64,000 nt of DNA. It comes from DASRDR01 sp963812945 [NCBI: uncultured Candidatus Rokubacteria bacterium] (lineage in GTDB: Bacteria > Methylomirabilota > Methylomirabilia > Rokubacteriales). A model generated the notes under the pieces. That model did no database searches. It saw nothing but the letters and a program-made list of their open reading frames with translations, and was not told the origin of the DNA. The stretch is taken from the NCBI GenBank assembly GCA_963812945.1, contig CAWEXD010000010.1, forward strand, positions 372,001 through 436,000, given 5' to 3'. Shown piece by piece: positions 28,673-48,449 of the stretch. Within the stretch, counting starts at the first letter, position 1, and every line of letters begins with the position of its first letter. The translations under genes were made by a program, and so were the position numbers.

Positions 28673-29776
28673 TCAGGACGGGTCGCCGGGATCGCGCCGA
28701 ACCAGGTGGAGGGCCGTGGCCTTGATCGAGACCGCGACCGGCACGCCCGGCGCGAGCGCGAGCGTCTCGACGGCCGGCCGCGTGACGAGCGCGGTGAGCG
28801 ACACCCCGCAGTCGACTCCGACGCGCCAGAGAGGCCCGAGCGGCGCGAGCCCCACGATGCGGCCGTCCAGGCGGTTCTGGGCGCTCGTGGGCCCGCCGGC
28901 GTGAGCATGGGCCAGCGTGAGGTCCTCCGGCCGGCAGCCGACCAGGACGCGCTCGCCCGGACGGGCGGTCGCCGCGACGGTCAGCCGGGCCCCGCCCACG
29001 TCCACCTCGGCGAGCCCATCGGTCACGGCCACCACGCGTCCCGGCAGGAGGTTCTCGACCCCGACGAAGCGGGCGATCGCTTCGCTGGCGGGCGCCCCGA
29101 AGACCGCCGCGGGCGGGCCCACCTGCGCCAGCCGGCCCTCCAGGAGGACGGCCACGCGGTCGCCGAGCCGGAGCGCCTCGGCCCGGTCGTGCGTGACCAG
29201 AACCGTCGTGGTTTCGGTCGCGCCGAGCAGGCGTCCGAGGTCGTCGAGCAGCCCCTCGCGGGTCGGCGCGTCCAGCGCGGCGAAGGGCTCGTCCAGGAAG
29301 AGGATCTCCGGCAGGGCGGCGAAGGCTCGGGCGAGACTCGTGCGCTGGGCCTCGCCGCCCGAGAGCCGGTCCACCGGCCGGTCGGCGAGCGCGGAGATCC
29401 CGAGGCGCCCGAGCCAGTCTCGCGCGCGCCGGTCGGCCTCGGCGCGCGCCACGCCGCGCAGCCGGCAGGCCAGGCCGGCGTTGTAGAGGACGGAGCCCCG
29501 GCAGAGGAGCGGCTCCTGGAAGACGCACGCCATGCGGCGTCGCCAGGCGAGCCGCTCGGCCTCGGATGTCGGCGCGGCGCCGTGGAGGCGCACCGTGCCC
29601 CGGGGCGGGCGCATCAGGAGCGCGAGCACGCGGAGGAGCGTGGACTTGCCCGCGCCGTTCGGGCCGATCACGGCCAGCACCTCGCCGGGCCGGACTTCCA
29701 GCGCCGGCACGGCGAGAACCACCTGGCCGTCGTACCGGACCTCGACGTCGGTGACTTCCAGCACCGGCGCGGTCAC
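28673..29776 (-). CDS. tupC: Tungstate/molybdate-type ABC transporter ATP-binding protein
   Basis: 367-aa ATPase: Walker A GPNGAGKSTLLR, signature LSGGEAQRTSLARA, Walker B ILFLDEPFAALDAP and H-loop LVTHDRAEAL. The C-terminal third (from about residue 245) is a molybdate-binding-like TOBE/MOP-type regulatory region. Its Q-loop FQEPLLCRGSVLYNAGLACR resembles TupC/WtpC proteins and differs from the ModC at 29832. Last intact gene of the tupB-modB-modC-tupC run. Assignment to tungstate rests on the presence of tupA and tupB-like partners; the substrate could be either oxyanion. Confidence 0.8.
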   Translation of the reverse strand: MTAPVLEVTDVEVRYDGQVVLAVPALEVRPGEVLAVIGPNGAGKSTLLRVLALLMRPPRGTVRLHGAAPTSEAERLAWRRRMACVFQEPLLCRGSVLYNAGLACRLRGVARAEADRRARDWLGRLGISALADRPVDRLSGGEAQRTSLARAFAALPEILFLDEPFAALDAPTREGLLDDLGRLLGATETTTVLVTHDRAEALRLGDRVAVLLEGRLAQVGPPAAVFGAPASEAIARFVGVENLLPGRVVAVTDGLAEVDVGGARLTVAATARPGERVLVGCRPEDLTLAHAHAGGPTSAQNRLDGRIVGLAPLGPLWRVGVDCGVSLTALVTRPAVETLALAPGVPVAVSIKATALHLVRRDPGDPS

Positions 29777-29791
29777 CGCAGTCTCTCTATT

Positions 29792-29811
29792 GGACGGCCT
29801 GCGGCCTGTGG
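29792..29811. repeat. Short extragenic palindromic repeat, copy C
   Basis: GGACGGCCTGCGGCCTGTGG in the 55-bp space between the modC stop (29832) and the tupC start (29776). Related to copies at 5219 and 33394. Confidence 0.6.
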
Positions 29812-29831
29812 GACCTCGAGGACGGGCGCGG

Positions 29832-30953
29832 TCACACTTCGGCGATCACCTGGAGCGCGCCGCGATGCATCGAGACGTCCCACTCTCGATCGCGGCCGAT
29901 CTCCAGGATCTCGTAGACGAGGTGGGGCACCTCGATCTCGAGGTCGTACGCCCCCTGGCTCGGCGGACCCGGCGCGGCGATCCGGAAGAGCAGTGTCCAC
30001 GACCGTCCGTGGTCGATCGCCTCCACGATCGTCCCTCGAAGGAGGTTCATGTGGTGGCCGGGATCGGGGCGCGCGCGATCCTTCCGGATGAGCCGCACGT
30101 GCTCCGGCTGCACGACGAACGCGACCGACGTCCCCGGCGCCGCCTGGAGCGGGGCGGTCGGCAAGTTGACCGCCTCGATCGTGTGCCCGCGCCAGGCGAT
30201 CTCCACGCGGTCCGGGGCGGTCTTGATCACGCTGCCGCGCACGACGTTGCGGAGCCCGATCAGCCGCGCCACCGTCTCGGAGGCCGGACGGCCCAGCACT
30301 TCGGTCTTCGGGCCGGCCTGTACGACCCGGCCGGCCTCGTAGAGGATCAAACGATCGCCGAGCTGATAGGCCTCGCCGAGATCGTGGGTGACGAGGACGA
30401 CGGTCCGCCGGAGCCCGACGATGAGGGCGCGCAGCTCCTCGCGGAGCTGCCGGCGCAGCGGCGCGTCGAGGGCGGAGAGCGGCTCGTCGAGGAGCAGCAC
30501 GGCCGGGTCCGGGGCGATGGCGCGGCCGAGGGCCACCCGCTGCTGCTGGCCCCCCGAGAGCGCCCCGGGGTAACGCCCGGCCAGCTCCTCGAGGCCCATC
30601 TGGGCGAGAACCTCCGCCGTGCGCCGTCGACGCTCGGGCCCCGGGCGGCCGCGGAGCCCGAACGCCACGTTCTCCGCCACGGTCCGGTGGGGGAACAAGG
30701 CGTAGCCCTGGAACACGTAGCCCAGGTGGCGGGCTTGGGGCGGCAGGTGGATCCCGGTCACCGTGTCGTCGAAGACACGGCCGTTGACGACCACCCGGCC
30801 CGCATCGGGGCGAGCGAGCCCCGCCAGGCACTGGAGCGTGAGGCTCTTCCCCGCGCCCGAGGGCCCGAACAGCGTCACGACCTCGTCGCCCGCCTGCCAC
30901 TGGACGTCGAGCATGAACCCCGGCAGGGCCATGCGGAGCGCCACCTCGATCAT
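29832..30953 (-). CDS. modC: Molybdate ABC transporter ATP-binding protein
   Basis: 373 aa. Walker A GPSGAGKSLTLQ, Q-loop VFQGYALFPHRTVAENVAFG, signature LSGGQQQRVALGRA, Walker B LLLDEPLSALDAPLRRQ and H-loop LVTHDLGEAY. The start region MIEVALRMALPGFMLDVQWQ matches ModC's habit of beginning close to the core beta strand. The C-terminal 130 residues form TOBE/MOP-like regulatory domains. Follows modB by 7 nt. ModB, ModA and a molbindin nearby support the molybdate assignment, but tungstate cannot be excluded. Confidence 0.87.
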   Translation of the reverse strand: MIEVALRMALPGFMLDVQWQAGDEVVTLFGPSGAGKSLTLQCLAGLARPDAGRVVVNGRVFDDTVTGIHLPPQARHLGYVFQGYALFPHRTVAENVAFGLRGRPGPERRRRTAEVLAQMGLEELAGRYPGALSGGQQQRVALGRAIAPDPAVLLLDEPLSALDAPLRRQLREELRALIVGLRRTVVLVTHDLGEAYQLGDRLILYEAGRVVQAGPKTEVLGRPASETVARLIGLRNVVRGSVIKTAPDRVEIAWRGHTIEAVNLPTAPLQAAPGTSVAFVVQPEHVRLIRKDRARPDPGHHMNLLRGTIVEAIDHGRSWTLLFRIAAPGPPSQGAYDLEIEVPHLVYEILEIGRDREWDVSMHRGALQVIAEV

Positions 30954-30960
30954 CGGGGCC

Positions 30961-31623
30961 TCACAGCCGGCTCCCCAGCCGGCTGGCGACGACCACGACC
31001 ACGCACGAGAGCGCCGTCAAGAGCAGCACCAGGAACTGCGCCTCGCCGGTCTCGCCCGTCGACACGGCCGTGTAGATGGCGAGCGGCACCGTGGTGGTTC
31101 GGCCCGGGATGTTCCCCGCCAGCATGAGCGTCGCCCCGAACTCCCCGAGCGCGCGCGCGAAGGCAAGCACCGCGCCGGCGACGATGCCCCGCCGCGCGAG
31201 CGGCAGCGTCACCTCGAGCGCCGTGCGCCACTCCGATCGGCCGAGCACGAACGCGGCGCGCTCGAGGTCCGGGCTCACGCTCTCGATCGCGGCGCGGGCC
31301 GGGCGCACCAGCAAGGGGAGCGCCATGACCGCCGACGCCACCACCGCGGCGTACCAGGTGAACGGGAGGCTGAAGCCCGTCAGGTCATAGAGCGGGCCGC
31401 CGAGCCAGCCGCGGCGGCCGAGGAGCACGATGAGGTAGTAGCCCGTCACCGTGGGCGGAAGGACCAGCGGCAGCATGACGAGGACGTCGAGCGCCTGCCG
31501 GCCCCAGAAGCGGCGCTTCGCGAGGAGATAGGCGAGCGGAATCCCAATCACGGCGGCGGCCAGGGTCGCCAGGATCGACACCCGGACCGAGAGCCAGAGG
31601 GCGCTCGCGATCGGCTCAGACAC
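30961..31623 (-). CDS. modB: Molybdate ABC transporter permease
   Basis: 220-aa inner-membrane permease. ModB signatures are clear: PLAYLLAKRRFWGRQALDVL, LPLVLPPTVTGYYLIVLLGR, and the ATPase-contact LGRSEWRTALEVTLPLARRG followed by AGAVLAFARALGEFGATLML. GTG start at 31623 overlaps the end of the upstream permease by 8 nt, so expression is coupled to it. Partner of modC immediately downstream and of the modA at 33426. Confidence 0.9.
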   Translation of the reverse strand: MSEPIASALWLSVRVSILATLAAAVIGIPLAYLLAKRRFWGRQALDVLVMLPLVLPPTVTGYYLIVLLGRRGWLGGPLYDLTGFSLPFTWYAAVVASAVMALPLLVRPARAAIESVSPDLERAAFVLGRSEWRTALEVTLPLARRGIVAGAVLAFARALGEFGATLMLAGNIPGRTTTVPLAIYTAVSTGETGEAQFLVLLLTALSCVVVVVASRLGSRL

Positions 31624-32312
31624 GGCGCCCCTGCTGGAGGGCGGTCAGCACCCAGTTCACGAGGAAGGTCAGCCCCAGCAGGATCACCGACAGCGCGATG
31701 GCGACGTCGAAGTTCCCCTTGCCCGTCTCGAGCACCGTCGCCGTCGTCAGGACCCTCGTCTGCCCCCGGATGTTGCCGCCGACCATCAAGCGACGCGCCG
31801 ACCTCCGAGATGACGGCGCCGAAGCCCGCCATCAAAGCGGCCAGGAGCCCGAGGCGGGCCTCGCGGACGAGGACCCACAGGAGCTGGCCGCGCGAGGCGC
31901 CGAGCGCCTGCATCTGGAGACGGAACCGCTCCGGGATCTGCTGCACGGCCGCGAGCGTGAGACCGATCACGAGCGGCGCCGCGATCACGAACTGGGCGAG
32001 CACGATGGCGGAGGGCGTGTAGAGAAGCTCGAGAACTCCCAGGGGACCGCTCCGCCAGAGGAGGATCGAGATGAACAGGCCAACCACGACGGGTGGGAGG
32101 CCCATCCCGGTGTTGACCAGGGCGATCGCGAGCCGCCGGCCGGGGAAGCGCACCAGCGCGAGGAGCGTCCCGAGCGGGATGCCGACCACGAGCGAGAGGA
32201 GCGTCGCGGTCGCGGAGAGCTTGAGCGAGAGCCAGGTGATTCCGAGCACCTCGGGGTCCCCGCTCCACATCAGCCCGACCGCGCGCACGAGCCCGTCCCA
32301 GATCAGCTCCAT
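31616..32312 (-). pseudogene. tupB: Tungstate ABC transporter permease, frameshifted by one inserted base
   Basis: TupB-like permease in two frames. Residues 1-174 read MELIWDGLVRAVGLMWSGDP through GFGAVISEVGAS; the frame then shifts and continues as MVGGNIRGQTRVLTTATVLE, GKGNFDVAIALSVILLGLTF and ends LVNWVLTALQQGRRV with a stop at 31616. Removing one A of the AA at 31788-31789 (plus strand) restores a 231-aa protein with the family motif VGASLMVGGNIRGQTRVLT. The unbroken frame instead runs into Arg/Pro-rich noise to 31548. This is a genuine lesion, a sequencing error, or less likely programmed shifting at CTTGATG. Its restored end overlaps modB by 8 nt. Confidence 0.8.
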
Positions 32313-32681: not shown

Positions 32682-33338
32682 CTATGCCTCCTCTTCGGGA
32701 AAGCCGAGCCGGGCGCCCGCCGCGAGGCGGACCCGCTCGACATGACCCGAGATCCGGTCGTCGACAGTCTTCAGATGCATGTGCACGTCGGCGTCCGCGG
32801 GCGTGAAAATTCCGTGGTGCGCCGTCGAGTAGAAGCCGAGGATTACGGCCGCCCGGTTCTCCAGGGTGAAGCGCACCTTGGCCGCCTCGTGCCGCTCCGG
32901 CGTGTGGCGCTCCCCGTCGCGTTTGTCGAGGACGTGCAGCCGGGCCTGCGTCACGCGCCCCCGGATCAGGAATGGAAACGGCTCGGCGAGCCTCGCGGCG
33001 GCGGCTCGCCGGACGATCGCCTCGACCAGCGCGCGATCGTCGACCTCCGACTCCAGCGGCTCCTCCCGCCACGCCGGGACCTCGCTGGAAACGAGGAAGC
33101 AGGCGCGATGGTCGAAGCCCGTCACCACGGTGGGCTGCCCGTCGACCATGGTCGCGATCGACGGCACGCCCGCGAAGATCGATACTTCGCCGCGGCACCC
33201 CTCGAGGGGGCCGAGCCCGTAGAGGCGCGGGCGGCCGGCCAGCGTCCGCAGGTCGACATGGCCGGCAATGTCGCCGCCGAGGACGTCGCGCTGGGCGCCG
33301 ACCCAGTGGACCCGAGTGCCCGCCGCGGGCACGCTCAC
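32682..33338 (-). CDS. Acetolactate decarboxylase-like protein in the molybdate/tungstate locus
   Basis: 218 aa. It resembles the alpha-acetolactate decarboxylase family: an N-terminal strand region (VGAQRDVLGGDIAGHVDLRT, GLGPLEGCRGEVSIFAGVPS) and, near the end, metal-type histidines in the order HxH ... H (DADVHMHLKTVDDRISGHVE). The usual residues of family members that convert acetolactate to acetoin appear, but there are no acetolactate synthase or acetoin genes around it. It is embedded between modA and the molbindin, so it may have been recruited to a metal-oxyanion role. No signal peptide. Substrate uncertain. Confidence 0.65.
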   Translation of the reverse strand: MSVPAAGTRVHWVGAQRDVLGGDIAGHVDLRTLAGRPRLYGLGPLEGCRGEVSIFAGVPSIATMVDGQPTVVTGFDHRACFLVSSEVPAWREEPLESEVDDRALVEAIVRRAAAARLAEPFPFLIRGRVTQARLHVLDKRDGERHTPERHEAAKVRFTLENRAAVILGFYSTAHHGIFTPADADVHMHLKTVDDRISGHVERVRLAAGARLGFPEEEA

Positions 33339-33425: not shown

Positions 33426-34211
33426 TCACCGGGCCCCGGGCGGGGGCGGCTGGAAGCCGAGGCGCGCGAGCACGGCCCGGCCCTCCGCGCTCGCCAGGAG
33501 CTCGATGAAGGCCCGGCCGAGGGCAGGCTGCTTCGAGCTCGCCACCACCGCGACTGGGTAGACGACCGGACGGTACGTCTCCTCGCCGGGGCGGAACGCT
33601 TCCGTGACGCGGTCGCGCCGCACCGCGGCGTCGGTGGTGTAGACGAAGCCGGCGTCGACCTCACCCCGGGCCACGTACTCGAGCGCCTGACGGACGTTCT
33701 CGGCCAGGACGAGCTTCGGCTGGAGGCGGTCCCAGAGCCCGAGGGCGCGCAGGCTCTCCTCGGCATACTGGCCCACCGGCACCGTCTTCGGGTTCCCGAT
33801 GACGATGCGACCCACGCGGGCGTCGAGCAGATCCTGGGGCTTGGCCAGATCCACCCGCGAGTCGGTCGGCCTGATGACGGTGAGGACGTTCCGCGCGAAG
33901 TTGCGCCGGCTGTCCTTGACGATCAGCCCCTTCTGGTCCAGCTCGTCCATCTGACGCTGAGCGGCCGACACGAACAGGTCCAAGGGCGCGCCGGCCTCGA
34001 TCTGCTTCTGGAGCTCGCCCGAGGACCCGAAATTGTACCGGAGCTGGACCCCGGGGTGCCGGGTCGCGAACGCGCGCCCCAGCTCCTCCACGGCGTCCTT
34101 CATGCTGATGGCGACCGACAGCGTCACCTCCTGGGCGCTCGCCGCGGGGACGACCCCCACGCACAGCGCGAGCATTCCCAGGAGCCCCCCAACCAGGTTT
34201 CGCCTCAGCAT
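33426..34211 (-). CDS. modA: Molybdate ABC transporter substrate-binding protein
   Basis: 261 aa, with a signal peptide (VGGLLGMLALCVGVVPAASA). Mature ModA motifs: VTLSVAISMKDAVEELGRAF, RYNFGSSGELQKQIEAGAPL, DLFVSAAQRQMDELDQKGL, and VRQALEYVARGEVDAGFVYT. Oxyanion ligands would be the Ser residues of the first two motifs and the Tyr of GFVYTTDA. Start at the ATG 34211 (MLRRNLVGG); an ATG at 34232 is possible. Divergent from the ModE-like gene, with only about 50 bp between them for both promoters. A repeat unit follows its stop. Confidence 0.9.
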   Translation of the reverse strand: MLRRNLVGGLLGMLALCVGVVPAASAQEVTLSVAISMKDAVEELGRAFATRHPGVQLRYNFGSSGELQKQIEAGAPLDLFVSAAQRQMDELDQKGLIVKDSRRNFARNVLTVIRPTDSRVDLAKPQDLLDARVGRIVIGNPKTVPVGQYAEESLRALGLWDRLQPKLVLAENVRQALEYVARGEVDAGFVYTTDAAVRRDRVTEAFRPGEETYRPVVYPVAVVASSKQPALGRAFIELLASAEGRAVLARLGFQPPPPGAR

Positions 34212-34264
34212 GCGAACCCCATCGTCTGGCATGATCTCGGTCCGATGTGCCCTATGCACCGCCC

Positions 34265-34762
34265 ATGACCCGACCCGACCGTACCGGCGCCCGCAGGGCT
34301 CGTCAAACGGCTCGGCCCGACATACGGGGCGCCCGCCTCAAGACCCGGCTCTGGCTCGAGGTGAACGGCCAGTTCGCCCTCGGGGACGGCGGGCTCCACC
34401 TGCTCCTCGGGGTCCGCCGCCTGGGCTCACTGGCGGCGGCGGTGCGGCGCGTCGGCTGGTCGTATCGTCACGCCTGGGGGTATCTCCGGCGGGCGGAGGC
34501 GGTCCTCGGTGCCCCTCTCACCGCCACCCGACCCGGGAAGGGCCGGGCGCGCGGCACGGTCCTCACGGAGCTCGGGGATCGGATGGTGGCCCGGCTGCTC
34601 ACCGCCCGGCGGACCATCGACGGCGCGCTCGGCGCCCCGAGCGGGCCCGCCCCCGACGAGATCGCGGCGCGGGGCGGCGTCAGCCGCCGACCTGGTCTTC
34701 CCGCTGGCCGGCGATCGGCACGAACAGGGGCTGCCCGAACTTCTCGACGCCGAAGGTCTTGA
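34265..34762 (+). CDS. ModE-like winged-helix DNA-binding protein
   Basis: 165 aa. Residues 25-115 match the ModE N-terminal (LysR-like) winged helix: LKTRLWLEVNGQFALGDGGL, LAAAVRRVGWSYRHAWGYLR and TELGDRMVARLL. There is no C-terminal molybdate-binding domain, so sensing would need a partner such as the molbindin at 32466. Divergent from modA, which it probably regulates. The last 27 codons overlap the 3' end of tupA on the opposite strand by 83 bp and read as an Arg/Pro tail, so the true end is uncertain. Confidence 0.75.
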   Translation: MTRPDRTGARRARQTARPDIRGARLKTRLWLEVNGQFALGDGGLHLLLGVRRLGSLAAAVRRVGWSYRHAWGYLRRAEAVLGAPLTATRPGKGRARGTVLTELGDRMVARLLTARRTIDGALGAPSGPAPDEIAARGGVSRRPGLPAGRRSARTGAARTSRRRRS

Positions 34763-35528
34763 TGACCGCCTGGACTTCGGGGGAGACCATGAAGTCCGCG
34801 AACGCCTTCCCCGCCGCCGCGTTGACCCGGGGCCCGTTGGCCGGATTCACCTCCATCACCGAGTAGATGTTCAGGAGCGCCCGGTCCTTCTCCACCAGCA
34901 CGGGCAGGTCGACGCGCTTCTGGAAGGCGAGGTAGGTGCCCCGGTCCGTCAGGGCGTAGGCCTTCCGCTCGTTCGCCACCAGCAGGGTTTGCCCCATGCC
35001 CTGGCCCGACTCGATGTACCAGCTCCCCTTGGGCTCGATCCCGGCCTGCTTCCAGAGCGCCAGCTCGAGGCTGTGGGTGCCCGACTTGTCGCCCCGCGAC
35101 ACGAACCGCGCCTCGGCGGCGGCGATGCGCTTGAACGCCTCGGCCGCCGGCAACCCCTTGACCCGCGCCGGATCCTCGGCGGGCCCGATCACGATGAAGT
35201 CGTTGTACATGACGAGGCGCCGGTTCGACATCTTGCCGTCCTCGACGTACTTCTTCTCCTGAGCGGGCGCGTGGGCAAGGGTGACGTCGGCCTCGCCGCG
35301 CGCGGCGAGCGCGAGCGCCTGGCCCGTCCCGACCGATATCGTCTTGACCGAGTAGCCGGTCGTCTTCTCGAACGTCGGCACGAGGACGTCGAGGAGCCCG
35401 GAGTCCTGCGTGCTCGTCGTCGTCGAGAGGATGACCGTCCGGGAGGCCGGGGCGGGCGTCTGGGCCGCGAGAGGCCCGGCGGCGACCACGAGTGCGAGGG
35501 TCGCGAGGGCGAGTCGACGTCGCGTCAT
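34680..35528 (-). CDS. tupA: Tungstate ABC transporter substrate-binding protein
   Basis: 282 aa with a signal peptide (RRLALATLALVVAAGPLAAQ). The TupA hallmark is intact: VILSTTTSTQDSGLLDVLVP near the start of the mature protein, then SVKTISVGTGQALALAARGE, DVTLAHAPAQEKKYVEDG and SRGDKSGTHSLELALWKQAG. The TTTSTQD and RGDKSGT loops hold the oxyanion. Good ribosome binding site GGAGGATG before ATG 35528. Upstream there is no stop codon in frame for over 200 bp, and that stretch encodes a solute-binding-protein remnant. Confidence 0.92.
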   Translation of the reverse strand: MTRRRLALATLALVVAAGPLAAQTPAPASRTVILSTTTSTQDSGLLDVLVPTFEKTTGYSVKTISVGTGQALALAARGEADVTLAHAPAQEKKYVEDGKMSNRRLVMYNDFIVIGPAEDPARVKGLPAAEAFKRIAAAEARFVSRGDKSGTHSLELALWKQAGIEPKGSWYIESGQGMGQTLLVANERKAYALTDRGTYLAFQKRVDLPVLVEKDRALLNIYSVMEVNPANGPRVNAAAGKAFADFMVSPEVQAVIKTFGVEKFGQPLFVPIAGQREDQVGG

Positions 35529-35559: not shown

Positions 35560-35757
35560 GCTTCGGGGACCGAGCCCGGCCGGCCAGACCGCCCAGCTGT
35601 CGGCGCGGTGAAACGCTGCCGGGCCAGGAACCCCTGGCCTTCCGGTGACAGTATGAACGATACCAGCCGGAGCGCGCGTTCGGCACGGGCGCCAGCCAGG
35701 ACGGTGAGGGCGTGGGCGGCCGCGGGGCTCGGCTCGCCGGAGGCTATCCGGCCACTT
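35560..35757 (-). pseudogene. C-terminal remnant of a solute-binding protein fused in frame ahead of tupA
   Basis: Minus-strand frame reads GRIASGEPSPAAAHALTVLA, then GARAERALRLVSFILSPEG and QGFLARQRFTAPTAG. This is the typical last helix of a ModA/TupA-like binding protein, where VSFILSPEGQ...LARxxFxAP is conserved. It has no start codon of its own and overlaps the 3' end of the regulator gene in another frame. The frame stays open into tupA's ATG. I read it as the surviving tail of a deleted binding-protein gene. Chance coding similarity cannot be excluded. Confidence 0.45.
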
Positions 35758-36667
35758 CGCCGAGCACGCGCCCGCTGCGCGACGAGTCATAGCCGCCGAG
35801 GCGCTCGAGCTCCCGCTGGAAGCGCTCCGAGCGGATGGCCTCGATCAGCGCCTGGATCGGGGACCGGAAGAACCGGTCCTTGGGGATCACGAAGTCGAAT
35901 CGCTCGCGCGCGAGGGGCACGAACCCGAGGCTCAGCGCGCCGGCCACGGCGCGAGTCGCGACCCCGACGTCGGCCTCGCCCCGGAGGACCCGGAGCCCCA
36001 CTGCCCAGTGGGTCGACACCTCCTCCCGGTAGCCCACGACCCCCGCCTGCTCGACCCCGGCCGCGGCCAGCGCCTCGTCCGTGTACGCCCGCGTCCCCGA
36101 GCCGGGCTGGCGATTGACGAAGCGGAGGCCGCGGCGGCCCAGGTCCCCCACGCCCTCGACCTTTCGCGGGTTGCCGGTCCAGACCAGGAGCCCGAGCTCC
36201 CGCGAGAAGGCGTTCACCACCACCGCGGGGGACCCCGGCAGGTGGCGGGAGACCTGCGAGAGGTCGGGCTCCCCGGACGCGGGCTCGACGTGACCGCAGG
36301 CGGCCACGTCGGCTCGACCCTGGCTCAGGGCCGCCAGACCCCCGAGGCTCCCGATGCTGGCGATGAAGAGCAGGGGGTGTCCGGGCTGGCCACGGACGGC
36401 ATCCGGAAGTAGCGCGAGGGCCGGGTCATCGCCGCCGGCCAGAACGAGGCCCTTGGCAGGGAGGGCCACGCTCCCGGCCGGCGCCGGGCGGCCGCGTCCC
36501 CGTGCGCTGGTCTCGATCCACTCGTCGAGCAGGGGCACCGGGAACAGCCACTTGCCCGTGACTCGGCTCGCCGGAATCGCACCGCGCTGGGCCAGCAGGT
36601 ACACCGAACGCGGGTTCAGCCGGAGGTAGCGCGCGGCCTCGGCCACGGTCAGCAGACGCGACTCCAT
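35744..36667 (-). CDS. Excisionase-type HTH regulator fused to a periplasmic-binding-protein-like domain
   Basis: 307 aa from the ATG at 36667; a TTG four codons upstream is possible. Residues 1-55 form a MerR/excisionase-like DNA-binding domain (LLTVAEAARYLRLNPRSVYL, GAIPASRVTGKWLFP). The rest is a type II binding-protein-like domain with the LysR/ModA-like elements HVEPASGEPDLSQVSRHLP, FVNRQPGSGTRAYTDEALAA and RGEADVGVATRAVAGALSLG. One-component regulators of this architecture are associated with molybdate or tungstate transport and cofactor genes. It lies upstream of tupA on the same strand and starts beside a striking array of 10-bp-spaced ATCA units, its probable operator. Confidence 0.82.
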   Translation of the reverse strand: MESRLLTVAEAARYLRLNPRSVYLLAQRGAIPASRVTGKWLFPVPLLDEWIETSARGRGRPAPAGSVALPAKGLVLAGGDDPALALLPDAVRGQPGHPLLFIASIGSLGGLAALSQGRADVAACGHVEPASGEPDLSQVSRHLPGSPAVVVNAFSRELGLLVWTGNPRKVEGVGDLGRRGLRFVNRQPGSGTRAYTDEALAAAGVEQAGVVGYREEVSTHWAVGLRVLRGEADVGVATRAVAGALSLGFVPLARERFDFVIPKDRFFRSPIQALIEAIRSERFQRELERLGGYDSSRSGRVLGEVAG

Positions 36668-36777
36668 CCCAAGAGCCAATCTACATTGAAATCACAATGG
36701 ATCATACAGAATCATAACCGATCAATAATACTCTCTAGAGTACGAGTCCCAGGATTCCAGCGAGGTGGACGGATTTC
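36668..36777. promoter_or_regulatory. AT-rich control region with four 10-bp-spaced ATCA units
   Basis: Markedly AT-rich against the flanks. Four 10-mers begin with ATCA in exact 10-bp register: ATCACAATGG (36691), ATCATACAGA (36701), ATCATAACCG (36711) and ATCAATAATA (36721). Overlapping the first is an inverted repeat, CATTG-N6-CAATG. A 6-bp stem TACTCT-ct-AGAGTA follows (36728). It lies before the HTH/binding-domain regulator and after the D-aminoacylase stop. The one-turn spacing suggests an oligomeric regulator bound along one DNA face. Confidence 0.65.
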
Positions 36778-38385
36778 CTAGCGGACGGGCGCGAGAACGC
36801 GACCGGTCGGGCGAGGAGAGAAGCGCCCTGCCTCCAGCACGGCGCCCCCGTTCACCCAGACCCAGTCGATGCCCGCCGGGTAGCGGTGGGGCGCCTGGTA
36901 GGTGGCGAGGTCGTCGACCGTCCGCGGGTCGAAGACGACCACGTCCGCGGCGGCACCGGGCCGGAGGATCCCGCGGTCGGCGAGCCCGAGCCGCGCCGCC
37001 GACTGGCCGGTCATCTTGTGGACGGCGCCCTCCCAGCTGAGGACACCGCGCTCCCGGACGTAGGTGCCCAGGACCTTGGGGAAGCACCCGTGCTGCCGGG
37101 GGTGGGGCTTCCCCGCGTGCGCCTCCTCGGGGCCCGCGCAGAGCCCGAGGTTGTCGGAGCCGATCGTCACGTGGGGGAACTGGAGGCCCCGGGCGACGTT
37201 CGCGTCGAGCATCAGGAAGTGGATCATCGACACCTGCCCCTCGGCCTCGAGGAGGAGGTCGACCAGGGCGTCCTCCGCCGTGACCCGCCCGTCGGCCGCG
37301 ATCTCGGCCATGGTCCGGCCCTCGACTCCGGGAACCCGGGGACACTCCGCGATCAGGACGTCCGGCCAGGCGATCGGCCCGTTCGGCCCGCTCCAGCCTC
37401 CGTCGGCGGCCCGGCCGGCATCGAGGATCCGGCGGCGCGTGGGACCGTCCGCCAGCCGGCCGAGCAGCGCGGCCATGCCCCCCGCCTGGACCCACACGGG
37501 GAGCAAGGTCGCGAGCGTCGTCGACCCGGCCGTGTACGGGTACATGTCCGCCGTGACGTCGACGCCCCGCGCTCGCGCGGTCTCGATCGTCCGCAGGGCC
37601 TCGCCCATCTTGGGCCAGTTGGCCTTCAGGCACGCCTTCAGGTGAGAGATCTGGACCGGCACGTCGCCCTCGTCGCCGATGCGGATCGCCTCGGCGAGCG
37701 CCGCCTCGAGGGTCGGGCCCTCGCCCCGAATGTGCGAGGCGTAGAGGCGGCCGGATCGGCCCCCCACCACCCGCGCCAGCGCGATCAGCTCGTCGGTGGC
37801 CGCGTAGACGCTCGGCGCGTAGATGAGCCCCGTCGACAGGCCGAAGGCGCCGGCGTCGAGCGCTTCCCCGAGAAGGGCCGCCAGCTGTCGCCCCTCGTCC
37901 ACGGTCGGGGGGCGCTGCTCGAGCCCCATGGCGGCGATCCGCAGGGTCCCGTGGCCGACGAAGGGCACGACGTTCGCCGTGAGCCCGGCCTGCCGCAGCC
38001 GGTCGAGCCAGGAGCCGAAGCTGGTCCACCCCCAGTCGAGGTCCGGGGAGAGGAACGCGGCCCACTCCCGCAGCAGCCCTCCGCCCAGCGCCGCCGGGGC
38101 CGGGGAGAAGCCGCACATGCCCGTCACCTCGGTCGTGACCCCCTGGCGGACCTTGGCCTCCGCCGAGGGGTGGGCGAGGAGGGCGAAGTCGGAGTGGGCG
38201 TGCATGTCGATGAAGCCGGGCGCGACCATGCACCCCGCCGCCTCCACGACCCGGGCCGCGTCGCCCGGGAGAGCCGGCGCCACCGCCGCGACGCGATCGC
38301 CGCGGAGTCCGACATCCGCCTGCCGGCCCGGGCCGCCCGTTCCGTCGAGGACGGTCCCGCCGCGGATCAGCCAGTCGAACGCCAT
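36778..38385 (-). CDS. N-acyl-D-amino-acid deacylase (D-aminoacylase family amidohydrolase)
   Basis: 535-aa metal-dependent amidohydrolase. Key positions: the HxH pair in GFIDMHAHSDFALL, a metal-type Cys in TGMCGFSPAPAAL, the His in YASHIRGEG, the His in QISHLKACLKANWPKM and the Asp in TIGSDNLGLC. The C-terminus carries the family's HPRQHGCFPKVLGTYVRERG. It hydrolyses N-acyl-D-amino acids; the genomic context (after the Mo/W locus) gives no pathway. ATG 38385 with GGAGGGTC-type purines upstream. Confidence 0.88.
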   Translation of the reverse strand: MAFDWLIRGGTVLDGTGGPGRQADVGLRGDRVAAVAPALPGDAARVVEAAGCMVAPGFIDMHAHSDFALLAHPSAEAKVRQGVTTEVTGMCGFSPAPAALGGGLLREWAAFLSPDLDWGWTSFGSWLDRLRQAGLTANVVPFVGHGTLRIAAMGLEQRPPTVDEGRQLAALLGEALDAGAFGLSTGLIYAPSVYAATDELIALARVVGGRSGRLYASHIRGEGPTLEAALAEAIRIGDEGDVPVQISHLKACLKANWPKMGEALRTIETARARGVDVTADMYPYTAGSTTLATLLPVWVQAGGMAALLGRLADGPTRRRILDAGRAADGGWSGPNGPIAWPDVLIAECPRVPGVEGRTMAEIAADGRVTAEDALVDLLLEAEGQVSMIHFLMLDANVARGLQFPHVTIGSDNLGLCAGPEEAHAGKPHPRQHGCFPKVLGTYVRERGVLSWEGAVHKMTGQSAARLGLADRGILRPGAAADVVVFDPRTVDDLATYQAPHRYPAGIDWVWVNGGAVLEAGRFSPRPTGRVLAPVR

Positions 38386-48362: not shown

Positions 48363-48449
48363 TGGTGCGAGAGGGGGGAGTTGAACCCCCAAGGGATTTC
48401 GCCCACTGGATCCTAAGTCCAGCGCGTCTGCCAGTTCCGCCACTCTCGC
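48363..48449 (-). tRNA. tRNA-Leu (anticodon UAG), CCA encoded
   Basis: 87 nt on the minus strand. Acceptor stem GCGAGAG pairs with CTCTCGC, discriminator A, then genomic CCA. Anticodon arm CTGGA-CTTAGGA-TCCAG gives UAG; the long variable arm (TGGGCGAAATCCCT) and TTCAACTCC T-arm fit a class II leucine tRNA. It lies about 60 nt after a good promoter and 35 nt before tig, so it is probably cut from the tig transcript. Confidence 0.93.

What the first reader, a model, noticed from the sequence alone, without database searches (positions are those of the whole stretch)
36691..36730. Four ATCA-headed 10-bp units in exact helical register beside a Mo/W regulator
Seen directly: 10-mers at 36691, 36701, 36711 and 36721 each start ATCA, inside an unusually AT-rich pocket, overlapping a CATTG-N6-CAATG inverted repeat. 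They sit at the start of an excisionase-HTH/binding-domain regulator and at one edge of a molybdate/tungstate locus. Exact one-turn spacing points to a protein polymerising along one face of DNA, unlike the dyad of classical ModE sites.
Basis: partly seen in the sequence, partly recalled or inferred. Interest (0 to 1): 0.72.

Follow-up and report, generated by a model that had tools for sequence, protein, structure and literature searches.

The report
Ten-base repeat operator, molybdenum/tungsten regulator
A short DNA stretch repeated once per helix turn sits in front of a gene for a probable molybdenum/tungsten-sensing regulator, and many relatives of that regulator carry similar ten-base repeats, so it is probably the docking strip on which the regulator lines up side by side.

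Summary
ATCA starts at 36691, 36701, 36711 and 36721, in the gap just upstream of the regulator. It is the only tetramer repeated four times at 10-bp spacing in the 64 kb; 0 of 20,000 local shuffles reproduced it. The CATTG/CAATG inverted repeat is chance-level. I read the site as five units, 36684-36733.

The regulator is HTH_17 + PBP_like (the TaoR architecture), followed by a TupA-like gene. Comparison with relatives is the key result: upstream of related regulators, lag-10 self-similarity has z>2 in 34% of 79 and 51% of 31 loci, versus 6% of 110 control upstreams, and a tied-repeat fit strongly prefers period 10. The predicted HTH fold is closest to BldC and RdfS, known to line up head-to-tail on DNA.

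Best reading: an operator for cooperative head-to-tail binding of a TaoR-like Mo/W sensor.

Caveats: the window's core (ATC) differs from the family's (TAC/AAC), so the family motif does not score it. More than half of the relatives show no array. No close relatives were reachable. The TaoR paper was not held. Binding, stacking and ligand response are untested.

The parts
36684..36733 (+). Array of five 10-bp units: CATTGAAATC ACAATGGATC ATACAGAATC ATAACCGATC AATAATACTC; C at position 10 of all five units, ATC in the first four
   Evidence: framing of the unit follows the family motif
36691..36724 (+).
35744..36667 (-). Regulator, 307 aa: HTH_17 (PF12728) + PBP_like (PF12727), TaoR architecture
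36509..36655 (-). Codons of the HTH_17 domain (residues 5-53)
   Evidence: fold nearest BldC/RdfS
35831..36370 (-). Codons of the PBP_like domain (residues 100-279)
   Evidence: full-length model nearest to phosphate- and amino-acid-binding SBPs and LysR-type regulators
34680..35528 (-). TupA-like tungstate-binding protein gene, next gene downstream of the regulator on the same strand
   Evidence: NF041772, below its curated cut-off
36701..36730 (-). Candidate -10 hexamers inside the array (TATGAT 36701-36706 and 36711-36716, TATTAT 36725-36730), without a good -35
   Evidence: weak consensus matches only; the scan lists no promoter on this strand
34247..34762 (+). ModE-like DNA-binding domain gene; no TOBE domain was matched; a second Mo regulator in the locus
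   Evidence: TIGR00637, below cut-off
33426..34259 (-). modA molybdate-binding protein gene
   Evidence: TIGR01256, above cut-off
28673..32312 (-). Mo/W-type ABC transporter genes: two permeases (31548-32312, 30961-31623) and two ATPases (29832-30953, 28673-29776)

Best explanation
The array 36684-36733 is the operator of the regulator encoded just downstream. The regulator is a TaoR-like one-component Mo/W sensor: an excisionase-type winged HTH plus an oxyanion-binding PBP domain. Each 10-bp unit is contacted by one HTH: the recognition helix reads the C-containing core in the major groove, and the wing sits in the AT-rich minor groove four bases away. Neighbouring protomers stack head-to-tail on one face of the helix, as in BldC and RdfS. 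In the window the array covers -17 to -66 of the start codon, where the promoter should lie, so the simplest mode is autorepression of the regulator-tupA unit, tuned by molybdate or tungstate in the PBP domain. Shown here: the 10-bp array, the domain architecture, the association of 10-bp arrays with this regulator family, and the fold similarity. Inferred: binding, head-to-tail stacking, repression and ligand control.
For: Array unique in the window and not explained by composition. Related regulators: lag-10 self-match z>2 in 34% of 79 and 51% of 31 upstreams versus 6% of 110 other upstreams in the same loci, and 54% of 22 representatives after clustering at 60% protein identity. Tied-repeat fit with three repeats: log-likelihood 425.6 for period 10 versus 148.0 (9) and 170.2 (11). 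49 of 111 loci reach motif score 15, 46 of the 49 in the same orientation to the gene. Of 46 gene-strand arrays, 36 have a TTGACA-like box at one of three distances. Of the three non-self hits at E<=0.1 in 20 genomes, one lies upstream of a WtpA tungstate-binding protein gene and one beside a molybdopterin-binding-domain gene. HTH model: nearest solved folds are BldC-DNA (TM 0.73-0.76) and RdfS (TM 0.78-0.79). Regulators sharing Ala after the YxL of the recognition helix with the window tend to have a GAT core like the window (4 of 5, window included, versus 5 of 107; post hoc).
Against: The family motif does not recognise the window site: PWM score 0.0 with the window held out, and no match to model R1 up to E=10. 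More than half of the relatives show no array: 62 of 111 stay under motif score 15, and at lag 10 about 66% of 79 and 49% of 31 stay under z 2. The window lacks the -35-anchored layout seen in many relatives. Of six more distant plasmid-borne homologues examined (44 records matched), 1 of 6 has z>2 at lag 10. One of the three best non-self genomic hits (L153) has no Mo/W neighbour recognised. No genome of the window's own lineage could be reached (best BipA/TypA identity 60%). The GAT/Ala association rests on four related sequences plus the window.
Confidence: 0.66

Rival explanations
1. The AT-rich pocket is only the core promoter, and the 10-bp ATCA phasing is a coincidence of an AT-rich 50-bp stretch.
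For: The pocket has 0.43 GC in a 70-80% GC surrounding, as a promoter would; -10-like hexamers overlap the array; the family motif does not score the site; more than half of the relatives show no array.
Against: Local shuffles that keep the AT-rich composition never gave the pattern (0 of 20,000); relatives of the same regulator are 10-bp periodic far more often than other upstreams in the same loci.
Confidence: 0.16
2. The repeats bend DNA intrinsically (phased A-tracts) and no protein reads them.
For: Family units contain T-runs phased at 10 bp (listing).
Against: The best conserved positions are a specific dinucleotide (A 97%, C 93% on the strand opposite the gene), not the A-tract; the window's units have no A-tract of four.
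Confidence: 0.06
3. The site is a dyad operator for the ModE-like protein of the same locus.
For: A ModE-like HTH gene lies at 34247-34762; an inverted repeat CATTG-N6-CAATG overlaps the array.
Against: No E. coli-type ModE site (core of the consensus in PMC545781) in the window with up to 3 mismatches; Desulfovibrio-type sites (inner part of that consensus, up to 1 mismatch) number 5 against 2.3 expected, none at the array; the inverted repeat is chance-level.
Confidence: 0.05
4. The regulator binds the array but activates rather than represses, as a class I/II-like activator.
For: In many relatives the array lies upstream of TTGACA at fixed distances, a layout usual for activators; TaoR is recalled to activate one target and repress another.
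Against: In the window no good -35 box follows the array and only 16 bp separate it from the start codon; in the four Binatota arrays the array also lies downstream of TTGACA.
Confidence: 0.2

Closest known systems
TaoR family (Desulfovibrio vulgaris DVU3193; Rajeev et al. 2019, doi 10.1111/1462-2920.14500; paper not held, content recalled except for passages of citing papers)
   Same: HTH_17 + PBP-like architecture (PMC11980592, passage; its TaoR-like proteins also carry a TOBE domain), association with tup/mod transport genes; PMC10102598 (passages) cites it, as tupR, as regulator of tungstate uptake
   Different: I could not read its published binding motif, so I cannot say whether 10-bp direct repeats were described; the window's core sequence differs from the motif of the relatives that I found
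BldC of Streptomyces (PMC5859096, passages)
   Same: HTH fold nearest in the PDB; asymmetric head-to-tail binding to AT-rich direct repeats with a C four bases beyond the AT tract, one helical turn between protected tracts on smeA-sffA
   Different: BldC is a 68-residue protein without effector domain; the window regulator has a PBP sensor domain
RdfS and phage excisionases (PMC11963761, passages)
   Same: HTH group 17 fold, head-to-tail oligomer, about 10 bp per protomer
   Different: RdfS acts in ICE excision and its authors found no consensus motif; the passages seen describe no sensor domain
ModE (consensus sites from PMC545781, passages)
   Same: Mo-responsive control of transporters
   Different: Dyad sites; neither known site type is at the array

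Membership tests
TaoR-like regulators | N-terminal HTH_17 plus PBP_like domain | tested here: met
   PF12728 45.8 bits and PF12727 192.8 bits, both above cut-off (27)
TaoR-like regulators | Linked to tungstate/molybdate transport genes | tested here: met
   TupA-like next gene, modA and ABC genes beyond
TaoR-like regulators | Response to tungstate or molybdate | not testable with these tools
   needs ligand binding
TaoR-like regulators | Operator with the relatives' 10-bp unit (GTTATTTTTA on the gene strand, as derived here; not taken from the TaoR paper) | tested here: not met
   score 0.0 held out; no match. Periodicity is shared, core sequence is not; 62 of 111 relatives also stay under score 15
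BldC family | BldC-like winged HTH fold | tested here: met
   6ama/6amk chains among the top hits, rmsd 1.4-1.7 A in six listed chains and 2.5 A in one; Foldseek E 0.034-0.18, so fold-level only. By sequence profile BldC is not found
BldC family | Small protein without effector domain | tested here: not met
   PBP_like domain present
BldC family | Cooperative head-to-tail binding on direct repeats | not testable with these tools
   needs footprinting, stoichiometry or structure
ModE operator | E. coli-type dyad CGnTATATA-N6-TATATAnCG | tested here: not met
   0 matches in 64 kb with up to 3 mismatches

The most novel reading that the evidence does not exclude
HTH_17-PBP Mo/W regulators are ligand-gated DNA filaments: the oxyanion bound in the PBP domain switches head-to-tail stacking on arrays of 10-bp direct repeats, giving a graded, number-of-units response, with a recognition-helix residue (Ala versus Ile/Val) setting a GAT or GTW core. 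The window would be a member with a diverged core that lies over its own promoter.
Probability: 0.3. Interest if true: 0.7.

Novelty: new variant of a known kind. Interest (0 to 1): 0.5.

Why it matters
Bacterial one-component sensors commonly bind dyads as symmetric dimers. A metal-oxyanion sensor that reads arrays of one-turn direct repeats would join ligand sensing to the BldC/excisionase mode of stacking, and would explain how unit number, phasing and distance to -35 could set the response. It also suggests an operator rule (10-bp arrays at fixed distances from the -35 box) for finding Mo/W regulons in uncultured anaerobes.

Tried and rejected
Own-genome search: not possible, no genome is held for the window. 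Placing the window by its BipA/TypA homologue: best identity 60% in ten genomes of relatives' loci, so its phylum is not identified; a Methylomirabilota/Rokubacteria origin was my guess from GC content only and is not used.

ModE dyad reading: rejected. RNA element: at gathering thresholds Rfam finds only a tRNA at 48366-48449. Viral contigs: one marginal partial relative, L115, not used.

Extension to distant homologues on plasmids: 44 records matched, six were fetched (L176-L181); lag-10 z was -0.05, -0.44, -0.10, 1.75, 1.43 and 2.41, so the rule is not shown for the whole HTH_17-PBP class.

Search for more members of the Ala recognition-helix subgroup in 395 genomes returned only the four already known at 57% or more identity to L088 (L088 itself is one); the hits below that were not screened for the Ala residue.

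Non-self genomic hits with E between 0.1 and 1 were only partly examined: Pfam on chosen ORFs of L170, L172 and L173; L169, L171, L174, L175 and the hits without a locus were not followed. They are near chance level.

A first array alignment with approximate coordinates was replaced by one with computed coordinates. Hand counts were repeated by script.

Full report
Observation. The pattern is unique in the window and is not reproduced by 20,000 shuffles of the local sequence. The inverted repeat CATTG-N6-CAATG is of a kind that 38-52% of shuffles contain. Loose lag-10 self-similarity alone would not single the site out: 143 of 63,961 positions, its own included, score at least as high.

Context. 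The gap 36668-36777 lies between an amidohydrolase gene ending at 36778 and the regulator gene starting at 36667, both on the minus strand. The regulator has HTH_17 at residues 5-53 and PBP_like at 100-279, both above Pfam cut-offs. The next gene on the same strand is TupA-like (best NCBIfam model NF041772, below its cut-off); further on lie a ModE-like HTH gene on the other strand, modA, and ABC transporter genes. At gathering thresholds, no Rfam family other than a tRNA is found in the window.

Relatives. Three of the 34 repeat loci of the first set (L091, L111, L114) and were dropped, leaving 31. For every upstream (150 bp) I measured the best 30-bp self-match at lags 6-22 against dinucleotide shuffles. 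Lag 10 stands out: mean z 1.44 with 34% above 2 in set one (79 of 80 loci usable), mean z 2.19 with 51% above 2 in set two (31 loci), and mean z 0.05 with 6% above 2 in 110 other upstream regions of the same loci. Lag 20 has the second highest mean z in both sets (0.83 and 1.33); in set two lags 7 and 17 also rise a little (19% and 16% above 2), and in set one lags 6, 9 and 11 reach 11-13%. The window gives z 3.14 at lag 10, with 2.87 at lag 20 and 2.97 at lag 22. Greedy clustering of the proteins at 60% identity leaves 22 of 111, with mean z 1.83 and 54% above 2 at lag 10. By these measures more than half of the loci show no array.

Motif. A mixture model whose three repeats share one profile fits period 10 far better than 9 or 11 (log-likelihood 425.6, 148.0, 170.2). 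The unit reads GTTATTTTTA on the gene strand; on the other strand it ends in AC, with A at 97% and C at 93%. An AT-rich tract, four bases, then C is also the geometry published for BldC (AATTxxxxC; PMC5859096, passages). Of 111 loci, 49 reach score 15, 46 of them in the same orientation to the gene; 46 loci reach it on the gene strand alone, and 36 of these 46 have a TTGACA-like box (at most one mismatch) at 32-34 (14 loci), 49-51 (15) or 59-61 bp (9) from the first unit. Five have it 12 bp before the first unit, the four Binatota arrays with an exact TTGACA among them. These sequences are related, so the counts are not independent events.

The window against the motif. Framed as in the family, the window array is CATTGAAATC ACAATGGATC ATACAGAATC ATAACCGATC AATAATACTC: C in the last position of all five units, but T instead of A before it. 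The family profile therefore scores it 0.0 with the window held out, and the sequence-only model R1, built from 22 arrays, finds nothing in the window up to E=10. The shared features are period, orientation, place and AT tract, not the core. A possible reason lies in the protein: the window and L085, L088, L092 and L103 have Ala after the YxL of the recognition helix, where 106 of 112 regulators have Ile or Val and one has Thr; GAT pairs at 10 bp occur in 4 of 5 Ala loci (window included; L085 has one only at 20 bp) and 5 of 107 others (Fisher p 1e-4). This was noticed after looking, and the other three are 57-79% identical to L088, so I treat it as a lead.

Targets elsewhere. Model R1 was run over 20 genomes of array-bearing loci, the source of 20 of its 22 arrays. 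The regulator's own upstream is the best hit in 18 of 20, as expected by construction. Three non-self hits reach E<=0.1: one upstream of a WtpA tungstate-binding protein gene that is above its NCBIfam cut-off, on the same contig as the regulator about 3 kb away (L163, E 0.075); one beside a divergent gene with a molybdopterin-binding domain (L166, E 0.007); one between Fe-S protein and proline dehydrogenase genes with no Mo/W link seen (L153, E 0.002).

Fold. The full-length model (mean pLDDT 87.7) shows a winged HTH, a low-confidence linker at 56-66 and a PBP domain. Its best PDB matches are phosphate- and amino-acid-binding SBPs and LysR-type regulators. The HTH alone (pLDDT 93.9) matches BldC-DNA complexes first and RdfS among the top seven; TM to query is 0.73-0.79, but Foldseek E-values are 0.03-0.3, so this is fold similarity only. 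A sequence profile of the HTH finds three weak PDB matches: part of an oxidoreductase (E 0.009), RacA (0.18) and Gp37 (0.59), the last being the Pukovnik Xis entry named in PMC11963761; BldC is not among them. BldC and RdfS line up head-to-tail with about one DNA turn per protomer (PMC5859096 and PMC11963761, passages).

Limits. Six of 44 plasmid records with more distant homologues were examined; z>2 at lag 10 in 1 of 6. No close relative of the window's organism could be reached. The TaoR paper is not held; seven of the eight library searches looked for this regulator family or its operators, and I saw no description of 10-bp operator repeats for it in their listings or in the passages I read, but most subscription papers are missing from the library, so I make no claim that it is unpublished. 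Binding, stacking, sign of regulation and ligand response are all untested.

Verdict. The feature is real and most likely a protein-binding operator made of one-turn direct repeats, used by a TaoR-like Mo/W regulator in the manner of BldC. The family-level periodicity is the strongest part; the step from family to window rests on place, orientation and period, not on core sequence.

Noticed in passing
36729-36742: Perfect 6-bp inverted repeat TACTCT-CT-AGAGTA at the far edge of the array, overlapping its fifth unit; unexplained.
   Followed up: no
31548-32312 (-): TupB-like permease ORF matches its best NCBIfam model only to position 147 of 184, and the rest reads unlike a permease: possible frameshift or truncation, or assembly error.
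   Followed up: no
34247-34762 (+) and 33426-34259 (-): ModE-like DNA-binding domain ORF overlaps the start of the divergent modA ORF (as listed, starts not checked); the locus thus has two different Mo/W regulators.
   Followed up: partly
32682-33338 (-): ORF with an alpha-acetolactate decarboxylase match (PF03306, E 8e-7) between modA and the permeases; an odd partner in a Mo/W locus.
   Followed up: no
L178 and L181, just upstream of position 2495: Alphaproteobacterial homologues lie divergent from ABC transporter genes, with ATGCA twice at 10-bp spacing just before the regulator gene in both.
   Followed up: partly
L179:2501-3427: In Rhodobacter capsulatus plasmid pRCB133 the HTH and substrate-binding domains are annotated as two genes beside arsenic genes (ArsR-type regulator, arsJ), hinting at another oxyanion for this architecture.
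   Followed up: no
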